DNA of 64,000 nucleotides from Tuwongella immobilis (lineage in GTDB: Bacteria; Planctomycetota; Planctomycetia; Gemmatales; Gemmataceae): positions 1,216,920-1,280,919 of the forward strand of contig NZ_LR593887.1 of the NCBI RefSeq assembly GCF_901538355.1, in the 5' to 3' direction. Positions 34,837 through 43,478 of the stretch are shown here, one piece after another. Below the pieces are notes generated by a model. The model saw only the letters and a program-made list of their open reading frames with translations. It did not search any database and was not told the DNA's origin. The translations under genes and the position numbers were made by a program. How positions within the stretch are numbered: position 1 is the stretch's first letter; every line of letters begins with the position of its first letter.

Positions 34837-37800
34837 ATGTTGAGGAAACGATTGCTCCCAAAAACATACCAACGACAAGGGGTAATCCTCCTTGTGGTCG
34901 TGGTAATGCTCGCATTGTTCGCCGTGATCGGGTTGTCGTTTGTACTCTATTCGGAGTCGGAAGCGAATGCTTCACGACTCTATCGCGAATCACAGTCGTT
35001 CGCCACTCGTGGGACGGCACCAGATCCAACTGCGATTTTTAATCGTGGTCTCGGAGACATTATTTATGATGCTCCAGACGACGAGACGGGTGTTTATAAT
35101 GCCGTGCGCGGTCATAGTCTCTCACGAGCAGTTTATGGTTTTAAGTACGATTTTACGAAATTAGGCGCAACGAACCGCTGGACCATTAACGGTGCGGATA
35201 ACCGAGTTCCCTTCAACGGGCTTGGGATGATCACCAATGGCCAACCCTCTTTGAGTGGATACGATCATCAGACTCGGATCAACTACTCATATTTTCCAGG
35301 TGATCCAACTGTAACTCAAATGCTGGACCCGGAACGGCTGGCTCCCCGTGCCCCGTTTGCTGCTCCAAGCAATATCTACATCGGGAAGAACGCAGGGTAT
35401 ACCTATCCCGATCTCAACAATGCTTACCTGGGGGCGATTCGTGCGAGCGATGGCCGCGTGTTGATTCCGTCATTCCATCGACCCGATTTGTTTAATTACA
35501 ATGACGCGAATCCAACGGTACCTCATCCACAAGCGTTTAACGATCCAGCCCATCCCAACTGGACGAATGTTATTGGGAAGTATCGAACTCTGCGTCCACG
35601 ACCGGAAGATCAGAAACTGAATGCGACCGATACGCCGACATTTCCCTATCCGGTGGATATTGGCGGGGATGTGAAGAACGTTGAAGGCTCACTGGGGTTC
35701 AACGGTACGCCGGACGGAATGGATTCAATTTGGGTTGACCATGATTATCCAGTTCGAGATTGGAACGGCCGACTTTATAAGCCGTTATTCGCATGGTTTA
35801 TTGCGGATCTCGATGGGCGTGTGAATTTGAATACGGCCGGGAATATTCGGTATGCGTCGAATCAAGGTTGGGGTGGCTGGGAAGTGAATCCCGCCTATGT
35901 GTTGAATCGTAGTGGGGCGGAATATCAACAATTGTTGGCCAGCACTGGGACGGTGATTGGTCGTTATGGTCGTGCGGATGCGCTGGACGGTCAGTTTCGG
36001 CCGCGTTCGGTGACCGGTGCCAGTTTGGCGACCCCGGGTACTGCCCCCCGTGATTATGCTCGGGTCGATTATGATTCGGGTGATAAGTCCGCTGCGTTAG
36101 CCGCTGGCACTGGATTTGGACTCCCCGCTTCGGGTGATAATCGATTATATCCGGCATTCGATGCCCGTTATGGCGATGGCAATGCGATCGAACGGACCGA
36201 TCATCCTTCGGTGCATTCAAGCTATTTCAATCCTGATTTCACACCAACCGGGATGCCCAATTGGAAGAACCGAATTTTCTCGATTGCTGATATGCGACTG
36301 CTCAACTGGAAATACACTGGTGATTCGACTGTCTATCAGGAATCTGATCTCGGCAAACTACTTCCCAACAATCTCGGTTCGAATATCACCACTGGGTTGA
36401 ACCCGCGATTTGCGACGACGACGGTGAGCAGTGACTTCGCATTTCCGGGGATAAAGCCGTTTCTTTCGTCTTTTGCAGGAACGGAACGTCTCTCCTATAC
36501 CAGCGGGGCGATTCCGAATTATCCATCGCCTGTTTCCGGGGCGGGCTATAACGCCGCTCCAAGCTTTATTGCCAATCAGCCGCCGATTCAATCGGGTGAT
36601 GTCCGCGGGTATGATGCGTTGAATGGCTCCGCGTTACCGACGGATTGGCGATCGACCGCGTCCGCTTGCAGCATTCCAGGGTATGAATATGTGGGGGCGT
36701 TGAATTTAAATCGCCAGCTCACGGATTATCGAATCGATCCCAACGCCGCGTTTGATGCGGGGGCCAATGCGAATTTGGCGACGAACACGGCTCATGTGCA
36801 GCGAGCGGAACGTGAACGTCAAGAAATGGCGTTGGAAATCTATAAGCGGCTGATTATCACAACCGGTGTGAATTATGCTGCTACCAAGGCGGCCCAACCC
36901 AATGAATGGAATGCCAAGCGTTGGATGGCTCAATTGGCGGTGAATATCGTTGATTATATTGATAATGACGATGTGATGACGCCGTTTGTTGCCTGGACTC
37001 GGATCCAGCCGAATCGCCCTTCAACAGATTCGGTGCCTTCTCCAGCTGATCCAAACATGCTCGTGCCAAATGAGGATGATCTAACGGAAGTGGTTTGGGG
37101 CACGGAACTTCCGCGATTGGTGTTGAATGAGGCGTATGCGGAAGTCCGCAACCATCCGGATGACACCAATCCGACGCCTGATCCCATGGATATGAAGAAA
37201 CGCCCGACTAAAGATTTTCTCATGAATTTTTGGGTGGAGCTGCATAATCCGTTGGCTCCGGATTCGACCGCTGCGGATAACGGTGCGGCGCGTCTGGTGA
37301 ATTCGGCGGGGCAGGCGGTCTACCGGCTGCAAATCATCCAACCCACGTTGCTCACCAATCCGAATTGGTTGACATCGCTGCAAAATAATCGCGGCAATGT
37401 GAATAACGATTATGATGCCGATGACGGGACGACTCCCTTTCCGCCGCATGTGAAATTGGAAGTGAGCAATTGGAACATGGCACCGGCTCCGATCAATCCG
37501 ATGCCTCCTCCGGCGACGGATACGAATATCGTGTTGCCGGCCAATCACACGTATGCGGGCGTGGATAACGCGAATAATGGATTTTATGTGGTGGGGCCGA
37601 ATTTCAATTTGGGCCCGGCTCCGGCTGGCATGGATAATCAGCCGATGCGCTGCACGCTCCGCAAAGAATATAACGAGATGCAGCCCCCAGATTCGGTTGT
37701 GAATCGTACCGCGATGACCTATCCGGTCGAGCGTGGGAATAAGGACACGAACGCGAACATCCCAGCAGCTCATGATGTGGTGTTGCGTCGATTGGCGAAT

Positions 37801-39552
37801 CCGTATTTGCCGTATCAACCGAATCAGACGATGCCGTTATATAACCCGTATATCACCGTGGATGTGATGCGGGATGTCCGCACGCAAGATGGGTTGGCAT
37901 ACGACCAGAACGGCGAGCGGATGGCTCCGATCCAGGTGGCGGATCGCGTCGCGTATGGCAAGCGGTCGCCCTATGGCAGTGCGTTCGATGCGAATCCGGC
38001 AAATAATCAGATTGTGGAGCAAGATCCGGCGACGCAACGTCCGGGTGAGCCGAAAACGACGTTCTTCCGGCACAACGGTCGGCAAGATACTGGTCCAACG
38101 AATTCGGCAGGCGATACGTTGGACACGCCGTTTGAGTGGTTGGTGCATCTGGATCGGCAGCTGATTAACATTTTTGAAATTCAGCATGTGTCCGCATTTA
38201 AACCGCATCAACTCACGCAAGAGTTTAAGCGAACTCAGGGGACACCGCCGCCGGGATTGAGCCATCGTCATGTGGCGCCTTGGTTGCGTGATCCGACGGC
38301 CGCGAATACCCTGGCATTTGCTCCCTCGACGCGGTTGTACCGTGCGTTGGAACTGCTGACCACGGCGAGCCGCACGGAATATCAAGGCAATCTGGCGCGA
38401 GTGCCAGGGAAGATTAACATTAACACGATTTATGATCGTGAAGTGTTGCAAGCGTTGATTGACCCGCAGCAATCGAATAGCTTCCATCAGTCAACGAATT
38501 ATTCCACGGCGACGACGAATGATTTGCTGCCGCTTTGGGATCGAATTCTGCAAGTGCGTTCCCCGGCGTTGGTTACCGCGAATCCGAACCCGCGAATCAC
38601 CGCCCAGGATCAGCCGTTCATGAGTTTCGGCGAACCATATATTAACGATGGAACGCCGACCGATCATGTGGGGCGAACACTGGTGCGAACCATCGGTGGA
38701 AACGCGACTCCGGATTTGGCGATGAATAACTCGATCTTTGAGGATTTATCGCAAACCAATAGCTATGTGCGCGATGAGATGTTGCGGAAGATGCAGAATA
38801 ACATCACGACGCGGTCTAACACATTTGCGGTTTGGTGTACGGTGGGTTATTTTGAAGTGCGTGGGTATAACGCTCAAGGGCGTCCTTGTTTGGGGACGGA
38901 AATTTCAGAATTGCCGCGAAATCGCTTCTTTGCGATTGTGGATCGCACCAATCTGTCGCTGGCGGTGGTGCAAACCCCGGCTCCTGCGACGCCGGGCGAG
39001 CCACGAGTGGGCATGAATCGAACTCCGGGACCGAAGCCGTGCTTCTTTAAGATTGAGCAAATGGAAATTGATCCGGCGACAACTCCGGACAATCGATTTG
39101 CGACGGTGGTGGTGCCGGTGAGCGAGTATCAAATCTCGGGTCAGCCGGTGAATACGCCGCCGACCACTGTGTCGATCGATCAGCGATCGACCACGCCCGG
39201 CCTTGTGGTGAATCGTGTGGAAGGGGTGTACGATGGCCAGGAATGGTCGGTGAGTGTGAATACCCCGTTCTATGTGATGGGCCTTGGGAATTCGGTGGCG
39301 GGTTCGATTCCTGCCGATGGAACGGTGATTGCCCCGATTCAAGTTTACGGGCCGCCGGTGGGGGCACCCGCTGGGGCGATGGGGGTTGCGGTCTTCAAGG
39401 TGCGTTTGGCGAATGAAGTCACGGTGCCGAATTTGTCGCCGGGCGATAGTTTCTCGAATGTGCCGTTGGGGAACCCGGGGCCGCAGAAGGACTTTAATGT
39501 GGCTTCTCCGGTGTATTCGGGCGTGGTGCCGTTGGCCGTGCAGGTGCGTTAA
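34837..39552 (+). CDS. Giant GspK/PilX-like minor pilin-type protein
   Basis: A 1571-residue protein with an N-terminal prepilin-like helix, RQGVILLVVVVMLALFAVIGL, lacking the Glu at +5; absence of that Glu is characteristic of GspK, the tip pseudopilin. GspK proteins are usually about 300 residues, so this is roughly five times longer. The mature part is rich in Asn, Pro, Asp and Tyr, with few cysteines. A GspK-like helical section may lie near residues 1170-1240 (RVPGKININT, then DREVLQALIDPQQ): KININTA-like text is typical of GspK. It closes the GHIJK-ordered cluster. The end is marked by a strong terminator. Confidence 0.85.
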   Translation: MLRKRLLPKTYQRQGVILLVVVVMLALFAVIGLSFVLYSESEANASRLYRESQSFATRGTAPDPTAIFNRGLGDIIYDAPDDETGVYNAVRGHSLSRAVYGFKYDFTKLGATNRWTINGADNRVPFNGLGMITNGQPSLSGYDHQTRINYSYFPGDPTVTQMLDPERLAPRAPFAAPSNIYIGKNAGYTYPDLNNAYLGAIRASDGRVLIPSFHRPDLFNYNDANPTVPHPQAFNDPAHPNWTNVIGKYRTLRPRPEDQKLNATDTPTFPYPVDIGGDVKNVEGSLGFNGTPDGMDSIWVDHDYPVRDWNGRLYKPLFAWFIADLDGRVNLNTAGNIRYASNQGWGGWEVNPAYVLNRSGAEYQQLLASTGTVIGRYGRADALDGQFRPRSVTGASLATPGTAPRDYARVDYDSGDKSAALAAGTGFGLPASGDNRLYPAFDARYGDGNAIERTDHPSVHSSYFNPDFTPTGMPNWKNRIFSIADMRLLNWKYTGDSTVYQESDLGKLLPNNLGSNITTGLNPRFATTTVSSDFAFPGIKPFLSSFAGTERLSYTSGAIPNYPSPVSGAGYNAAPSFIANQPPIQSGDVRGYDALNGSALPTDWRSTASACSIPGYEYVGALNLNRQLTDYRIDPNAAFDAGANANLATNTAHVQRAERERQEMALEIYKRLIITTGVNYAATKAAQPNEWNAKRWMAQLAVNIVDYIDNDDVMTPFVAWTRIQPNRPSTDSVPSPADPNMLVPNEDDLTEVVWGTELPRLVLNEAYAEVRNHPDDTNPTPDPMDMKKRPTKDFLMNFWVELHNPLAPDSTAADNGAARLVNSAGQAVYRLQIIQPTLLTNPNWLTSLQNNRGNVNNDYDADDGTTPFPPHVKLEVSNWNMAPAPINPMPPPATDTNIVLPANHTYAGVDNANNGFYVVGPNFNLGPAPAGMDNQPMRCTLRKEYNEMQPPDSVVNRTAMTYPVERGNKDTNANIPAAHDVVLRRLANPYLPYQPNQTMPLYNPYITVDVMRDVRTQDGLAYDQNGERMAPIQVADRVAYGKRSPYGSAFDANPANNQIVEQDPATQRPGEPKTTFFRHNGRQDTGPTNSAGDTLDTPFEWLVHLDRQLINIFEIQHVSAFKPHQLTQEFKRTQGTPPPGLSHRHVAPWLRDPTAANTLAFAPSTRLYRALELLTTASRTEYQGNLARVPGKININTIYDREVLQALIDPQQSNSFHQSTNYSTATTNDLLPLWDRILQVRSPALVTANPNPRITAQDQPFMSFGEPYINDGTPTDHVGRTLVRTIGGNATPDLAMNNSIFEDLSQTNSYVRDEMLRKMQNNITTRSNTFAVWCTVGYFEVRGYNAQGRPCLGTEISELPRNRFFAIVDRTNLSLAVVQTPAPATPGEPRVGMNRTPGPKPCFFKIEQMEIDPATTPDNRFATVVVPVSEYQISGQPVNTPPTTVSIDQRSTTPGLVVNRVEGVYDGQEWSVSVNTPFYVMGLGNSVAGSIPADGTVIAPIQVYGPPVGAPAGAMGVAVFKVRLANEVTVPNLSPGDSFSNVPLGNPGPQKDFNVASPVYSGVVPLAVQVR

Positions 39553-39584: not shown

Positions 39585-39626
39585 CACTCCGCCCGGTGTC
39601 GATGTGAGTCGATGCCGGGCGGAGTG
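39585..39626. terminator. Strong bidirectional terminator hairpin
   Basis: Perfect 12-bp arms (39585-39596, CACTCCGCCCGG, and 39615-39626) enclose an 18-base loop. It lies 33 bases after the giant gene and about the same distance from the convergent gene's end. TGATTATT follows on the plus strand and TTTTCATT on the minus strand, which supports termination in both directions. Confidence 0.7.
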
Positions 39627-39658: not shown

Positions 39659-40390
39659 TTAATCGTCCCAATCATCATCCCAATCGTTGGCCTGGTGATA
39701 ACTCGGGCCGTGTTGGTGATACCATTTCCGGTTGGCATCATATCGAAACCAAGCGGCATCTTTGGCAGACCAATATAACCAACAACGAAGGTTGCGATCG
39801 TATTGTTCGTGAGTCCACTTGGGGTGGTTGTTGGCCGGGTAACCGCGTGCACCCCATTGCATCCGTTGGTTGCCGTCATCGATGATGATCGAATTGCCGA
39901 TTCCCTGCCGGCTATTTTGGATGATCGTTCGACTGGTTCCATTGGCGGAATCGATCACCAATTTCCGACCGACACCGTTGGCGGCACCATCGATTCGGAC
40001 TTCGCGTGGGGCGGCCGGTTGTGCCACGGGCGGCAGTGGCTGGGCTGGCACTTCAGGGGCTACCTGCGGCACCGCTTCGGGGGTAACTTCGGGTGGAGCA
40101 ACGGGTTGTGGCTCCAGCGGGGCGACATCGAGCGGCGGTGGCGGCGGTTGCTCCCGTGGGAGTTGAGGCAGCGGCGGCAGCGGTTCTCGAGGCGGTGGTG
40201 GTGCCGGTTGCGGCGTGATTTCGGTGGGATTCCAGCGGATGACTTGGCCGTTGACGATGACCATTCCGCGTTCCACGTCCACCAACACACCGGGCGTTTG
40301 CACAATCGGGGCCACCGGGGGCGGCACAGGCACTTCGGGAGTGCCCATGCCCAACACCAGCGATGGCAGATGAAGCCAGAGCGACATCAT
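39659..40390 (-). CDS. Secreted Pro-rich protein with ANGxG repeats
   Basis: A 243-residue protein of no family I recognise. A short hydrophobic N-terminus (WLHLPSLVLGMG) may be a signal. A small domain follows (VLVDVERGMVIVNGQVIRWNP), then a Pro-rich linker (about 60-125) with PPPPREPLPPLPQLP. Residues 130-175 hold three diverged repeats in which AANGVGRKLVI, SANGTSRTII and RQGIGNSIII align with the repeats of the next gene upstream. A C-terminal domain rich in Trp, Tyr, His and Asp ends in NDWDDDWDD. GGGAGA lies eight bases before the ATG. It follows the repeat protein gene by 42 bases, probably in one operon. Confidence 0.7.
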   Translation of the reverse strand: MMSLWLHLPSLVLGMGTPEVPVPPPVAPIVQTPGVLVDVERGMVIVNGQVIRWNPTEITPQPAPPPPREPLPPLPQLPREQPPPPPLDVAPLEPQPVAPPEVTPEAVPQVAPEVPAQPLPPVAQPAAPREVRIDGAANGVGRKLVIDSANGTSRTIIQNSRQGIGNSIIIDDGNQRMQWGARGYPANNHPKWTHEQYDRNLRCWLYWSAKDAAWFRYDANRKWYHQHGPSYHQANDWDDDWDD

Positions 40391-40432
40391 GGAAATCGTC
40401 TCCCGTTGGGATAAATCGTTGGTCGGTTGGAA

Positions 40433-40978
40433 TTAACGATTCCGAATTCGCCCACTGTTGCCGACACCGTTGAAGCTATCGGTAATGACGTTGACGTTAA
40501 TTCCGTTGGAAGTCCGATTCCCCAGATTGATGCTGTTGCCCGCACCGTTGGCGCTATTGGTAATGACGTTGATGTTGATTCCACCGACACCCGGAATCCC
40601 ACCGGGGAAGCCCGAATGAACCGGCCGGCCATTGTGAATCCCAATGTGATTGCCGATTCCGTTGGCACTGTTGTGGATATGATTGTGATTCACACCGCCC
40701 GGAGCGAATCCGCCCGGATGGAAGCCGTTGTGGGGGAATCCGCCCTGATGGAATCCACTCTGAGGAAATCCACCGTGAGGGAAGCCGCCGGGGACGAAGC
40801 CACCGGGGAAATATCCGGGGAAGCCGGGGCGAGAGCCGTTATTCACAATAATCGAGTTACCAACACCGTTGGCACTATTATTGATCCGTGTTCGTGACGT
40901 TGGAGATTGAGCCGACGCATTGGAGTTGAAGGTCAGGAACGCACCCATCACAGCCAACACCAGAAGAAGACGCTTCAT
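40433..40978 (-). CDS. Secreted protein with four ANGxGNxI repeats and Gly-Phe-rich core
   Basis: A 181-residue secreted protein of unrecognised family. The signal peptide (MKRLLLVLAVMGAFL, cleavage after ASA) is clear. Four repeats follow the form INxSANGxGNxI: near residues 32-48, 101-117, 139-155 and 165-180, the last diverged to SFNGVGNSGRI. Between the first two lies a Gly-Phe core (about 51-95) with a five-residue period such as PGGF and PHGGF. The repeats resemble curlin-type units in spacing of Asn, Gly and hydrophobic residues but lack the Gln ladder. ATG 40978 is chosen so the signal is at the N-terminus. It is divergent from the peptidase gene. Confidence 0.75.
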   Translation of the reverse strand: MKRLLLVLAVMGAFLTFNSNASAQSPTSRTRINNSANGVGNSIIVNNGSRPGFPGYFPGGFVPGGFPHGGFPQSGFHQGGFPHNGFHPGGFAPGGVNHNHIHNSANGIGNHIGIHNGRPVHSGFPGGIPGVGGININVITNSANGAGNSINLGNRTSNGINVNVITDSFNGVGNSGRIRNR

Positions 40979-41201: not shown

Positions 41202-43478
41202 ATGAAACGACTCCTTGGAATGATGCTTCTTGCGCTGGTGCTGGCGACTGCTCACCAGATTCGCGCTGAATCCACTCCTGAAGCGAAGGGGAAGCCCCTG
41301 GACGCTGCGTTCATGCGATTATTTGCGGAAACTCGCGGATTTCTCAGCGGGCGACCGGTGAAAGCCAAGCCCTCTCCCGATGGCCAATCGGTGCTGTTTC
41401 TGCGGGGCGAAGCCAAAGGCGGGAAGCTAAAATTATATGAATTCCGTCTCGCAAATCGGGAAACCCGCGAACTGTTGACTCCCGAAACCGTGTTGCAAGG
41501 GGCCGAGGAGACGCTCTCCGCCGAGGAACGGGCCCGTCGAGAACGGATGCGCTTGGTTGCCGGCGGATTCACGGATTATCAATTTGATCCCACCAATGGC
41601 GATCAGTTGTTATTGCCGTTATCCGGAAAATTATATTTATTCACACGATCGACTCGCAAAGTCCGGGAATTAAAGACCGGGCCAGGAGTGTTGATCGATC
41701 CGAAATGGTCGCCCACGGGCAAGCAAATTGCCTATGTCCGCGATCATGATGTGCGCTTGTACGATCTTGCCAGCGATCAAGAATGGACCGTCACCACCGG
41801 CGGCACCGAAGCCAAACCGCACGGGGAGGCGGAGTTTGTCGCGCAAGAGGAGATGGGGCGATTGACGGGCTATTGGTTCTCGCCCGATGGAACGCAAATC
41901 GTGTTCGAGGAATACGATACGGCCGGTGTGGAGACTTGGTATGTGGCCGATGCCAGCAAGCCGGATCGGGCTCCACAGACGCAATTTTACCCCCGTCCGG
42001 GCAAGGCGAATGTCCGGGTGCGGGTCGGCATCGCCGATCTACCCACCGCCGAAGACCTCACCAGCAAAGCCCCGAAGTGGATCGAATGGAACACGCTGCC
42101 CGGCGAAGAAGGGCAGACCTTCCCGTATTTGGCCAACGTGATTTGGTCGAAGCATGGCCCGTTGACGTTGGTGCTGCAAACGCGGCGGCAAGATCGTAAG
42201 CGATTTGTGAGTGTCGATCCCAAATCGGGAGCATTGGCCGTTTATGATCGGTCGCATACGGATGCGGCATGGACCAATTTGCGCAGTGACGAGCCGCGAT
42301 TTCTGCCCGGCGGAACCTATCTGCATGTGTTGGAAGTTGCCAATGGCGATGAACTGCGTGAGTCCAAGATCACTGGCGAGCATCGACCGATTGTGCCGGC
42401 GACGTTGGGATTGCACGAAATTGAAGTCGTCGCGGTTCGTGGGGAGCGGATCTTTTTCCAAGCGACAAAATCGCCGGGACAAATGCACCTGTTCCAGGTG
42501 ACTCGCCCCACGAATTGGAGCGAGTCGGCCGCCACTCCCACTCCCTTGTCGCACGGCGAGGGGATGTTTGGCATGACGCTCAGTAAAGATGCGTCGTTCT
42601 GGGTCGAATCCTGCACCACGCTGCGGCAAATGCCGACCTTGACTGTTCGCAACGCCGATGGCACCGCGTTGGGAGTGCTGCCATCGGTGGCGATTGAACC
42701 GCCGTTTCAGCCAAACGTGACCGTCCAAAAATTGGGCGACGGTTTGGGGTATTATACGGCAATCGTGCGGCCGCAGAATTTCCAGTCGGGCAAGAAATAT
42801 CCGGTGTTGGTGGATGTGTACGGTGGTCCGCGGCATATCACCGTGCTGCACGGGATGCGTGCGTGGCTGCGCGATCAGTGGCTGGCCGATCAGGGATTCA
42901 TCGTTGTGGCGGTGGATAACCGCGGCACACCGGGCCGGGGGCGGGATTGGGAGCGGGCTGTCTATCGCAAGTTTGGTTCGGTGCCGTTGGAGGATCAAGT
43001 CGCGGGGCTGGCTGCGCTCGGTAAATCCTTTCCGGAATTGGATTTGCAGCGGGTGGGCATCGTCGGCTGGTCGTTTGGCGGTTACATGTCGGCACAGGCA
43101 GTGTTGAAGCGGCCCGATGTCTTCCATGCGGCCGTCGCCGGGGCACCGGTCACGGATTGGGAAGATTACGATACGCACTATACCGAGCGGTATATGGGGC
43201 TGCTTCCGGAGGATCAGGCGGCGTATGCGGACGGCTCGCTGTTGCCGGCGGCCAAATCGTTGAAACGACCGTTGCTGTTGGTCCACGGGACGGCGGATGA
43301 CAATGTCTATTTCCGGCATTCGCTGCGGTTGGCCGATGCGCTGTTTAAGAACGGCCAAGATTTTGACGTGCTTCCCCTGGCTGCCCAAACCCACATGGTT
43401 GCCGACCCGTTGGCCACCGAACGACTGTGGATTCGCATTAGCCAGTTTTTCCGCAAGCAGTTGGGAGAACCGAAGTAA
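41202..43478 (+). CDS. Dipeptidyl peptidase IV-type S9B serine protease
   Basis: A 758-residue exported serine exopeptidase. A signal peptide (MKRLLGMMLLALVLATAHQIRA) precedes the N-terminal DPP-IV propeller (about 50-480) and the alpha/beta hydrolase domain (about 510-755). The catalytic serine is Ser624 in GWSFGGYMS; the Asp lies in HGTADDNVYF (699-700) and His731 in AQTHMV. The paired Glu of the DPP-IV substrate pocket is seen in EFVAQEEMGRLTGYWFS. The enzyme should remove N-terminal dipeptides, preferably after Pro or Ala, in the periplasm. It is monocistronic or leads the kinase gene 115 bases downstream. Confidence 0.95.
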   Translation: MKRLLGMMLLALVLATAHQIRAESTPEAKGKPLDAAFMRLFAETRGFLSGRPVKAKPSPDGQSVLFLRGEAKGGKLKLYEFRLANRETRELLTPETVLQGAEETLSAEERARRERMRLVAGGFTDYQFDPTNGDQLLLPLSGKLYLFTRSTRKVRELKTGPGVLIDPKWSPTGKQIAYVRDHDVRLYDLASDQEWTVTTGGTEAKPHGEAEFVAQEEMGRLTGYWFSPDGTQIVFEEYDTAGVETWYVADASKPDRAPQTQFYPRPGKANVRVRVGIADLPTAEDLTSKAPKWIEWNTLPGEEGQTFPYLANVIWSKHGPLTLVLQTRRQDRKRFVSVDPKSGALAVYDRSHTDAAWTNLRSDEPRFLPGGTYLHVLEVANGDELRESKITGEHRPIVPATLGLHEIEVVAVRGERIFFQATKSPGQMHLFQVTRPTNWSESAATPTPLSHGEGMFGMTLSKDASFWVESCTTLRQMPTLTVRNADGTALGVLPSVAIEPPFQPNVTVQKLGDGLGYYTAIVRPQNFQSGKKYPVLVDVYGGPRHITVLHGMRAWLRDQWLADQGFIVVAVDNRGTPGRGRDWERAVYRKFGSVPLEDQVAGLAALGKSFPELDLQRVGIVGWSFGGYMSAQAVLKRPDVFHAAVAGAPVTDWEDYDTHYTERYMGLLPEDQAAYADGSLLPAAKSLKRPLLLVHGTADDNVYFRHSLRLADALFKNGQDFDVLPLAAQTHMVADPLATERLWIRISQFFRKQLGEPK

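What the first reader, a model, noticed from the sequence alone, without database searches (positions are those of the whole stretch)
39659..40978. Two-gene secreted ANGxGN-repeat system
Seen: adjacent minus-strand genes encode exported proteins sharing repeats of the form SANGxGNxI. One has a Gly-Phe core, the other a Pro linker and a Trp/Tyr/Asp-rich end. The repeat spacing recalls curlin units, which stack into amyloid, but the Gln ladder is missing. I know no family with this repeat. A cell-surface or matrix polymer with a companion protein is a reasonable guess, and this is my best candidate for an undescribed system.
Basis: partly seen in the sequence, partly recalled or inferred. Interest (0 to 1): 0.7.

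Follow-up and report, generated by a model that had tools for sequence, protein, structure and literature searches.

The report
Curli-like two-gene fibre system, Gemmataceae
Two neighbouring genes in this planctomycete encode secreted proteins built from the same short repeat, the pair is kept together in several related bacteria, and it looks like a home-made version of the protein fibres other bacteria use to stick together, though this has not been tested.

Summary
Gene A (40433-40978, minus; 181 aa) has four copies of a repeat like N-x-T/N-V-I-x-N-S-G/A-N-G-x-G-N-x-I-x-V-x-N. Gene B (39659-40390, minus; 243 aa) has two degenerate copies, a Pro linker and a Trp/Tyr tail. Pfam, NCBIfam and PDB sequences gave no convincing relative.

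The pair is not an orphan. Ten of 102 genomes of the order have it, all in one family. A precedes B on the same strand in all 8 genomes with both on one contig; in the other two the contig ends where the partner should be. Samples of the class (397) and phylum (392) found none outside the family. Eleven of 12 A-type proteins have four repeats; the nine B proteins aligned have two, 23-24 residues apart.

The repeat can be mapped onto the curlin kernel with Gln replaced by Asn and a longer first arc. Curlin and CsgF models do not match; CsgG gives only a fragment. The AlphaFold model of A is low-confidence (pLDDT 47) but gives four strand-turn-strand units; the nearest PDB chain, not significantly, is the CsgA fibril.

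Best reading: a curli-like beta-solenoid fibre, A the main subunit, B nucleator or anchor, probably convergent. Fold likely; polymerisation inferred.

The parts
40433..40978 (-). Gene A: exported protein of 181 aa with four repeats; proposed main fibre subunit
   Evidence: family
40910..40978 (-). A: signal peptide (residues 1-23, K/R start, hydrophobic core, ending A-S-A)
   Evidence: read by eye; no predictor was run
40838..40897 (-). A: repeat 1 (residues 28-47)
40694..40831 (-). A: Gly/Phe/Pro-rich spacer (residues 50-95), variable or missing in orthologues
   Evidence: modelled as coil, pLDDT 33-36 over most of it
40631..40690 (-). A: repeat 2 (residues 97-116)
40517..40576 (-). A: repeat 3 (residues 135-154)
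40439..40498 (-). A: repeat 4 (residues 161-180)
   Evidence: position listed; unit left out of the column counts because it is too near the end
39659..40390 (-). Gene B: 243 aa, companion with two degenerate repeats; proposed nucleator or anchor
   Evidence: family
40010..40219 (-). B: Pro-rich linker (residues 58-127); of nine aligned B proteins only this one has a long linker at this place
39947..40006 (-). B: repeat 1 (residues 129-148, AANGVGR)
39875..39934 (-). B: repeat 2 (residues 153-172, SRQGIGN)
39707..39820 (-). B: Trp/Tyr tail module (38 residues), shared with other Gemmataceae secreted proteins
39585..39626 (.). Palindrome between B and the convergent gene 34837-39552; possible two-way terminator
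   Evidence: one search lists it on the + strand only (19 pairs, G-T allowed), and terminator-like sites there are no more frequent than in shuffles (2 found, mean 2.1); that it also ends A-B is my reading of the T-rich minus-strand tail

Best explanation
A and B are the main and minor subunit of a lineage-specific, curli-like surface fibre. Each repeat folds as strand, tight Asn/Gly turn, strand; repeats stack so that I/V residues fill the core and Asn/Ser residues form hydrogen-bonded ladders where curlin uses Gln and Asn. A, with four repeats and open ends, would add head to tail into a fibre after Sec export. B, with two copies of the same rung and a Trp/Tyr tail, would hold the first rung at the cell surface and start or anchor the fibre. 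Shown here: the genes, the repeats, their near-constant number, the conserved pairing and order, the lack of CsgF and curlin-model matches. Inferred: the solenoid fold (about 0.7), polymerisation (about 0.45), B as nucleator or anchor (about 0.35); the route through the outer membrane is unknown. Confidence was lowered from 0.42 to 0.40 on checking, because the unit-level curlin similarity rests on columns that were used to pick the units.
For: Pair conserved A then B, same strand, in 8 of 8 genomes with both on one contig, gaps 31-196 nt; in the other two of ten pair genomes (G114, G078) a contig ends where the partner should be. Repeat number: four in 11 of 12 A-type proteins (G112's A has two), two in 9 of 9 aligned B proteins (two false regex hits in P0013, one in P0010 and the extra SANGTSR in window B discarded by eye). 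Spacing exactly 23 in all 9 intervals of three A paralogues, 23-24 in 9 of 9 B, against 23 +/- 5 for curlin (PMC10192328, passages). In the MAFFT alignment of 12 A-type proteins the columns conserved in 90% or more are, signal region aside, almost all Ser, Asn, Gly or Ile of the repeats. Over the 59 units listed, I/V/L stand at -3 in 56 and at +8 in 56, places not used to pick the units. AF2 of A: eight strands, a pair in each repeat; blocks of repeats 2-4 at pLDDT 53-61, repeat 1 at 42-49, Gly-rich spacer 33-36. Foldseek on PDB: of 7 matches with E<=10, ranks 1 and 3 are the CsgA fibril and FapC, none significant. VIA second look: CsgA Z 7.8 (rmsd 8.8, 85 aligned), next a SufB-SufC-SufD chain Z 5.9 (2.8, 107). 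Unit profile against 12 E. coli CsgA/CsgB units: hhalign score 10.4 against 5.7 +/- 1.4 for column shuffles, 1 of 200 reaching it. Fimbriae are reported for Tuwongella immobilis, the likely source (PMC5845749, passage).
Against: AF2 confidence is low (best of five models pLDDT 47.4, the others 30.6-41.0; pTM 0.39; two-row alignment), far below the mean of 83 reported for 2,686 curlins (PMC10192328, passage). The structural matches have E 2.7 and 3.4 and TM-scores of 0.14-0.21; FapC has Z 2.7; VIA warns that Z under 8 may be only a common arrangement. B's model is poorer still and hits nothing meaningful. Whole-protein profiles of A and B against CsgA/CsgB do not match (probability 0.4 and 0.2%). 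The unit-level match has probability 10%, covers 6 columns (GxGN and its neighbours), and both sets were picked by patterns that fix a G-x-x-N, which the column shuffles do not correct for. No dedicated secretion or chaperone gene was recognised beside the pair, by eye. Spacing in this window's A is irregular (69, 38, 26), so spacers must loop out. Positions -4 (42 of 59) and +9 (36 of 59) are also V, I or L (+9: V or I), so the in-out alternation is less clean than in curlin. The pair is patchy, also within genera, so it is dispensable.
Confidence: 0.4

Rival explanations
1. A and B are non-polymerising beta-solenoid surface proteins, for example adhesin-like or ligand- or ice-binding proteins, in which the repeats are a scaffold and the spacers or the B tail do the binding.
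For: Antifreeze and ice-binding proteins and a putative adhesin are among the weak structural matches; [quoted passage not shown] Three paralogues have charged residues in and after the repeats and C-terminal extensions.
Against: The repeats are alike from end to end with no obvious cap (by eye); a two-protein pair sharing one rung fits subunit and starter better than two separate binders (inference).
Confidence: 0.29
2. A and B are matrix or cell-wall proteins that stay largely disordered and condense or cross-link (Gly-Phe spacer, Tyr/Trp tail), with the repeats as weak stickers.
For: Gly/Phe/Pro-rich spacer in A, Pro linker and Trp/Tyr/Asp tail in B; low pLDDT. Phase separation of an extracellular protein is described for the anammox bacterium Ca. 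Brocadia sinica (PMC7482068, abstract and outline).
Against: The spacer is missing in G032, G116 and the paralogues while the four repeats stay; strict 23-residue spacing in the paralogues points to an ordered stack.
Confidence: 0.19
3. The proteins are true but very divergent curlins (the degenerate class), descended from CsgA/CsgB.
For: The kernel can be mapped position by position; unit-level similarity reached by 1 of 200 shuffles, with the caveat on unit choice; degenerate curlins with arc insertions and lost N/Q exist (PMC10192328, passages).
Against: PF07012 in 0 of 59 genomes, three of them pair genomes, and not among the Pfam matches of 12 A-type and 9 B proteins; CsgF over its cut-off in 0 of 10 pair genomes; no CsgG match in G005 and G032 and only a 50-of-210-position fragment in the window's genome; matches found only in one bacterial family.
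Confidence: 0.12

Closest known systems
Curli (CsgA/CsgB, Pfam PF07012 Curlin_rpt)
   Same: Adjacent genes for two exported repeat proteins sharing one unit; about 23-residue unit; Gly and Asn in the first arc; hydrophobic core positions.
   Different: Mostly Asn or Gly instead of Gln at the ladder positions; first arc two residues longer in my register; A before B (csgB precedes csgA in E. coli); two repeats in B, not five; Trp/Tyr tail; no CsgF and no curlin-model match; no csg gene recognised beside the pair.
Fap fibres (FapC/FapB)
   Same: Imperfect repeats separated by long variable spacers; conserved Asn; main subunit plus nucleator.
   Different: Four and two repeats instead of an almost universal three (PMC12822426, passage); one arch per unit in the low-confidence model rather than a Greek key.
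Gemmataceae secreted proteins with the same 38-residue tail (unnamed; e.g. L109, L111, L112)
   Same: Tail module aligned with B's tail: shared W, YW, Y and mostly C.
   Different: The six read in full lack the ANGxGN repeats.

Membership tests
Curli (CsgA/CsgB) | Match to the curlin repeat model PF07012 | tested here: not met
   0 of 59 genomes at E<=0.1, three of the ten pair genomes among them (E. coli control over the cut-off); no curlin among Pfam matches of 12 A-type and 9 B proteins at E<=10
Curli (CsgA/CsgB) | Gln at kernel positions 7 and 18 (Gln ladder) | tested here: not met
   In my register position -1 is N 31, G 14, D 6, Q 1 of 59 listed units; position +12 is N 26, P 11, G 7 of 59
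Curli (CsgA/CsgB) | Repeat length about 23 residues with Gly and Asn in arc 1 | tested here: met
   23 in three paralogues, 23-24 in B, 26-83 in A with spacers; conserved Gly and Asn columns in the alignment of 12 A-type proteins. Counts of G and N are partly built in by the search pattern
Curli (CsgA/CsgB) | CsgF assembly factor in the genome | tested here: not met
   0 of 10 pair genomes over the cut-off; one weak match in G112, E 0.09, with a stop inside
Curli (CsgA/CsgB) | CsgG channel in the genome | tested here: inconclusive
   Of three pair genomes covered, G005 and G032 have no match at E<=0.01; the window's genome has one over the cut-off (E 1.7e-5) but over 50 of 210 positions inside a 1406-aa frame
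Curli (CsgA/CsgB) | CsgE in the genome | not tested
Curli (CsgA/CsgB) | Beta-solenoid fold and amyloid fibre | tested here: inconclusive
   AF2 strand pairs in all four repeats at low confidence; CsgA fibril is the top Foldseek match but not significant; fibre formation cannot be tested with these tools
Fap (FapB/FapC) | Three imperfect repeats in both subunits | tested here: not met
   Four in 11 of 12 A-type, two in 9 of 9 aligned B
Fap (FapB/FapC) | fapABCDEF or fapBCDEF operon | tested here: inconclusive
   Neighbouring frames were listed and read by eye; no Fap model was run

The most novel reading that the evidence does not exclude
Gemmataceae evolved their own functional amyloid, independently of curli and Fap: a minimal two-gene system in which an Asn/Ser ladder replaces the Gln ladder, four rungs per main subunit and two per nucleator, with the nucleator tied to the planctomycete surface by a Trp/Tyr module that the family reuses in other secreted proteins, and with no dedicated secretion operon.
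Probability: 0.32. Interest if true: 0.75.

Novelty: new variant of a known kind. Interest (0 to 1): 0.55.

Why it matters
Fimbriae, matrix and rosettes are reported again and again in descriptions of planctomycetes (abstracts in the listing). If A and B make fibres, this gives a gene handle on such structures in Gemmataceae, and a natural test of which features of an amyloid rung are essential, since a similar architecture would have been reached with Asn in place of Gln and without the known curli export genes.

Tried and rejected
Considered and dropped: chance low-complexity repeat (shuffles; orthologues); an orphan gene of one genome; a plasmid-borne element (the compact orthologue P0013 gave no tblastn match at E<=0.01 in 72,556 plasmid records). 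Weak hits read as chance, none of them to this window's own two proteins: Pfam GldM_3rd (0.0053), ALK_LTK_GRD (0.0085), OCRE, GspH and others; NCBIfam blaCBP (0.0018), mini_HHHH (0.0022), SDR reductases, floc_PepA and others; two unnamed PHROGs; four PDB sequences for B at E>=0.61 and none for A (CsgA itself finds its own PDB entries). In the single-sequence searches matches other than the window's genome, G005 and G032 were not followed one by one, including a few at E 4e-5 to 0.01 (G017, G003, G041, G020, G027 and others); those lie mostly in the Gly- or Pro-rich stretches, and the profile searches did not recover these genomes. Foldseek matches of the B model (236 with E<=10, best 0.13) were judged meaningless at pLDDT 45. 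The promoter scan found none. Three literature listings showed, by title and abstract start, no paper on an amyloid of Gemmataceae: curli+Planctomycet+functional amyloid (4 papers), Gemmataceae+amyloid (1), Planctomycet+amyloid (91, 25 listed); this does not prove that nothing is in print, and no search for the repeat itself was made.

Limits: the phylum and class searches scored at most 8 and 9 candidates per genome, the order searches with A and B at most 33-38. The unit counts come from a pattern that demands N/D/Q, G and N/R/K at +2, +3 and +6, so conservation there is partly built in; of 46 real A-type repeats 37 are in the list, 9 being too near the C-terminus, and 3 false A units and 1 extra B unit are in it too. 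The genome-contig scan found one relative, L063, with the same match places as G114:C715, so I count them as one.

Full report
What is there. Gene A (40433-40978, minus) and gene B (39659-40390, minus) are 42 nt apart. The window is 64 kb of a single-contig genome of 6,690,754 bases; its own G+C averages about 56.5%. A begins with a signal peptide and carries four repeats and a Gly/Phe/Pro spacer; B carries two degenerate repeats after a Pro linker, then a Trp/Tyr tail. A palindrome at 39585-39626 lies between B and the convergent gene; the scan lists it as terminator-like on the + strand only.

More than chance. A's motif count of four was not reached in 20,000 shuffles (maximum two); the strict motif is absent from this window's B, whose copies are recognised through orthologues. 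Family-level profiles of A and B match each other at E 5.8e-15, signal peptides included.

Relatives. Single-sequence searches of 59 genomes gave G005 (A, E 5e-20) and G032 (B, E 7.6e-11; A, E 0.008), with the two genes side by side in both. A profile of four A proteins found 9 of 102 genomes of the order at E<=0.001, G112 among them through its B gene; with twelve proteins, 10 of 102 at E<=0.01, the tenth (G078) through its B gene. B proteins occur in the same ten genomes; the other 8 of the 18 genomes listed for B match only its tail (six) or its signal region (two). All ten are in one family. The class sample gave the same ten of 397, the phylum sample only the window's genome, 1 of 392; candidates scored per genome were capped. 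The pair is patchy: in genus g16 only G068, G069, G072 and G078 match, and in g32 and g33 some searched genomes lack it.

Gene order. Both genes lie on one contig in the window's genome, G005, G032, G068, G069, G072, G112 and G116; in all eight A precedes B on the same strand, gaps 31-196 nt. In G114 A ends about 130 bases from a contig end and B starts at the end of another contig; in G078 B starts 167 bases into its contig and no A is seen. Flanking genes differ between most genera (N-termini read by eye; exceptions in Noticed in passing). G032, G112 and G116 have an extra A-type gene (near the pair in G112 and G116, on another contig in G032) with four repeats exactly 23 residues apart and a C-terminal extension ending in S-R-R or S-R-K.

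The repeat. In the alignment of 12 A-type proteins the columns conserved in 90% or more are, outside the signal region, mostly Ser, Asn, Gly and one Ile of the repeats. Over the 59 units listed, N+2 is seen in 54, G+3 in 59, G+5 in 49, N+6 in 55 (partly forced by the search pattern), and I/V/L at -3 and +8 in 56 each (not forced). Curlin's kernel is N-$-hyd-$-hyd-$-Q-X-G-X-X-N-$-hyd-$-hyd-$-Q, 23 +/- 5 residues (PMC10192328, passages). The present repeat can be laid on it with Asn or Gly for Gln and with S-G-N-G-x-G in place of X-G-X-X; the register of the first strand is my reading. Against 12 E. coli CsgA/CsgB units hhalign scores 10.4 (probability 10%, 6 columns); one of 200 column shuffles does as well, but both sets were picked by patterns that fix a G-x-x-N, so this is weak. 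Whole-protein comparisons find nothing. I read this as convergence or a very remote tie, not as proof of descent.

Structure. AlphaFold on mature A with the L063 orthologue gives eight strands, two in each repeat; repeats 2-4 at pLDDT 53-61, repeat 1 at 42-49, spacer 33-36; mean 47.4 for the best of five models (others 30.6-41.0), pTM 0.39. Foldseek lists seven PDB matches with E<=10, none significant: CsgA fibril first (E 2.7, TM 0.17/0.21), FapC third (E 3.4, TM 0.14). VIA-align on 18 chains gives CsgA Z 7.8 with a poor rmsd of 8.8 over 85 residues, then a SufB-SufC-SufD chain Z 5.9 (2.8 over 107), FapC 2.7. This is in keeping with a beta-solenoid but does not establish it. B's model is uninformative.

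B's tail. The 38-residue module gives 23 matches in 20 of 102 genomes: eight are B proteins, fifteen lie elsewhere, five of these having been rows of the model. The five used as rows and a sixth (L114) were read in full: they begin with signal-like sequences, are mostly rich in Tyr and Cys, and have no ANGxGN repeat; two of these carriers and one B gave no meaningful Pfam match. B of G005 and of G069 lacks the module. So B is a composite: shared rung plus a module that the family uses elsewhere, a candidate for surface attachment (inference).

Not curli proper. PF07012 0 of 59; CsgF 0 of 10 over the cut-off; CsgG partial matches in 16 of 59 genomes, the window's among them, none in G005 and G032. 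The CsgG Pfam model is known to be unspecific (171 of 601 hits true; PMC3521004, passage). CsgE was not tested. Not Fap by repeat number (PMC12822426, passages).

Most likely working. A is exported by Sec, crosses the outer membrane by an unknown route, and stacks into a fibre; B supplies a matching short stack and an attachment tail. Fimbriae are reported for T. immobilis (PMC5845749, passage), with no link to these genes. Fibre formation is inferred throughout. I score the finding 0.55: a real, conserved two-gene system without a curated family, with a specific, testable analogy, but of a recognisable kind.

Noticed in passing
window 34837-39552 (+): Convergent 1571-aa gene with an N-terminal hydrophobic stretch like a prepilin or minor pilin (by eye); no Pfam or NCBIfam match at E<=1.
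   Followed up: no
window 41202-43478 (+); L089:1407-3683; L091:3232-5436: An S9 (dipeptidyl peptidase IV type) peptidase is divergent to A here; a prolyl-oligopeptidase-like protein, by eye, lies a few genes upstream of A in G068 and G072. May be coincidence.
   Followed up: no
L063 (JAIEQO010000752.1), 6250 bases: The listed frames of the contig mirror each other, with the A gene twice in opposite orientation; probably an assembly artefact.
   Followed up: no
L087:7667-8875 and L092:1774-2955: A similar 390-400-aa secreted protein, calpain-like by eye, sits next to the pair in G032 and G116.
   Followed up: no
L107, L108, L109, L111, L112, L114: Gemmataceae secreted proteins with a Tyr-rich, often Cys-rich module related to B's tail; the two put to Pfam had no meaningful match.
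   Followed up: partly
G000:C1:3879800-3879955: CsgG-like fragment inside a 1406-aa frame of the window's genome; other partial CsgG matches occur in 15 of the other 58 genomes searched.
   Followed up: no
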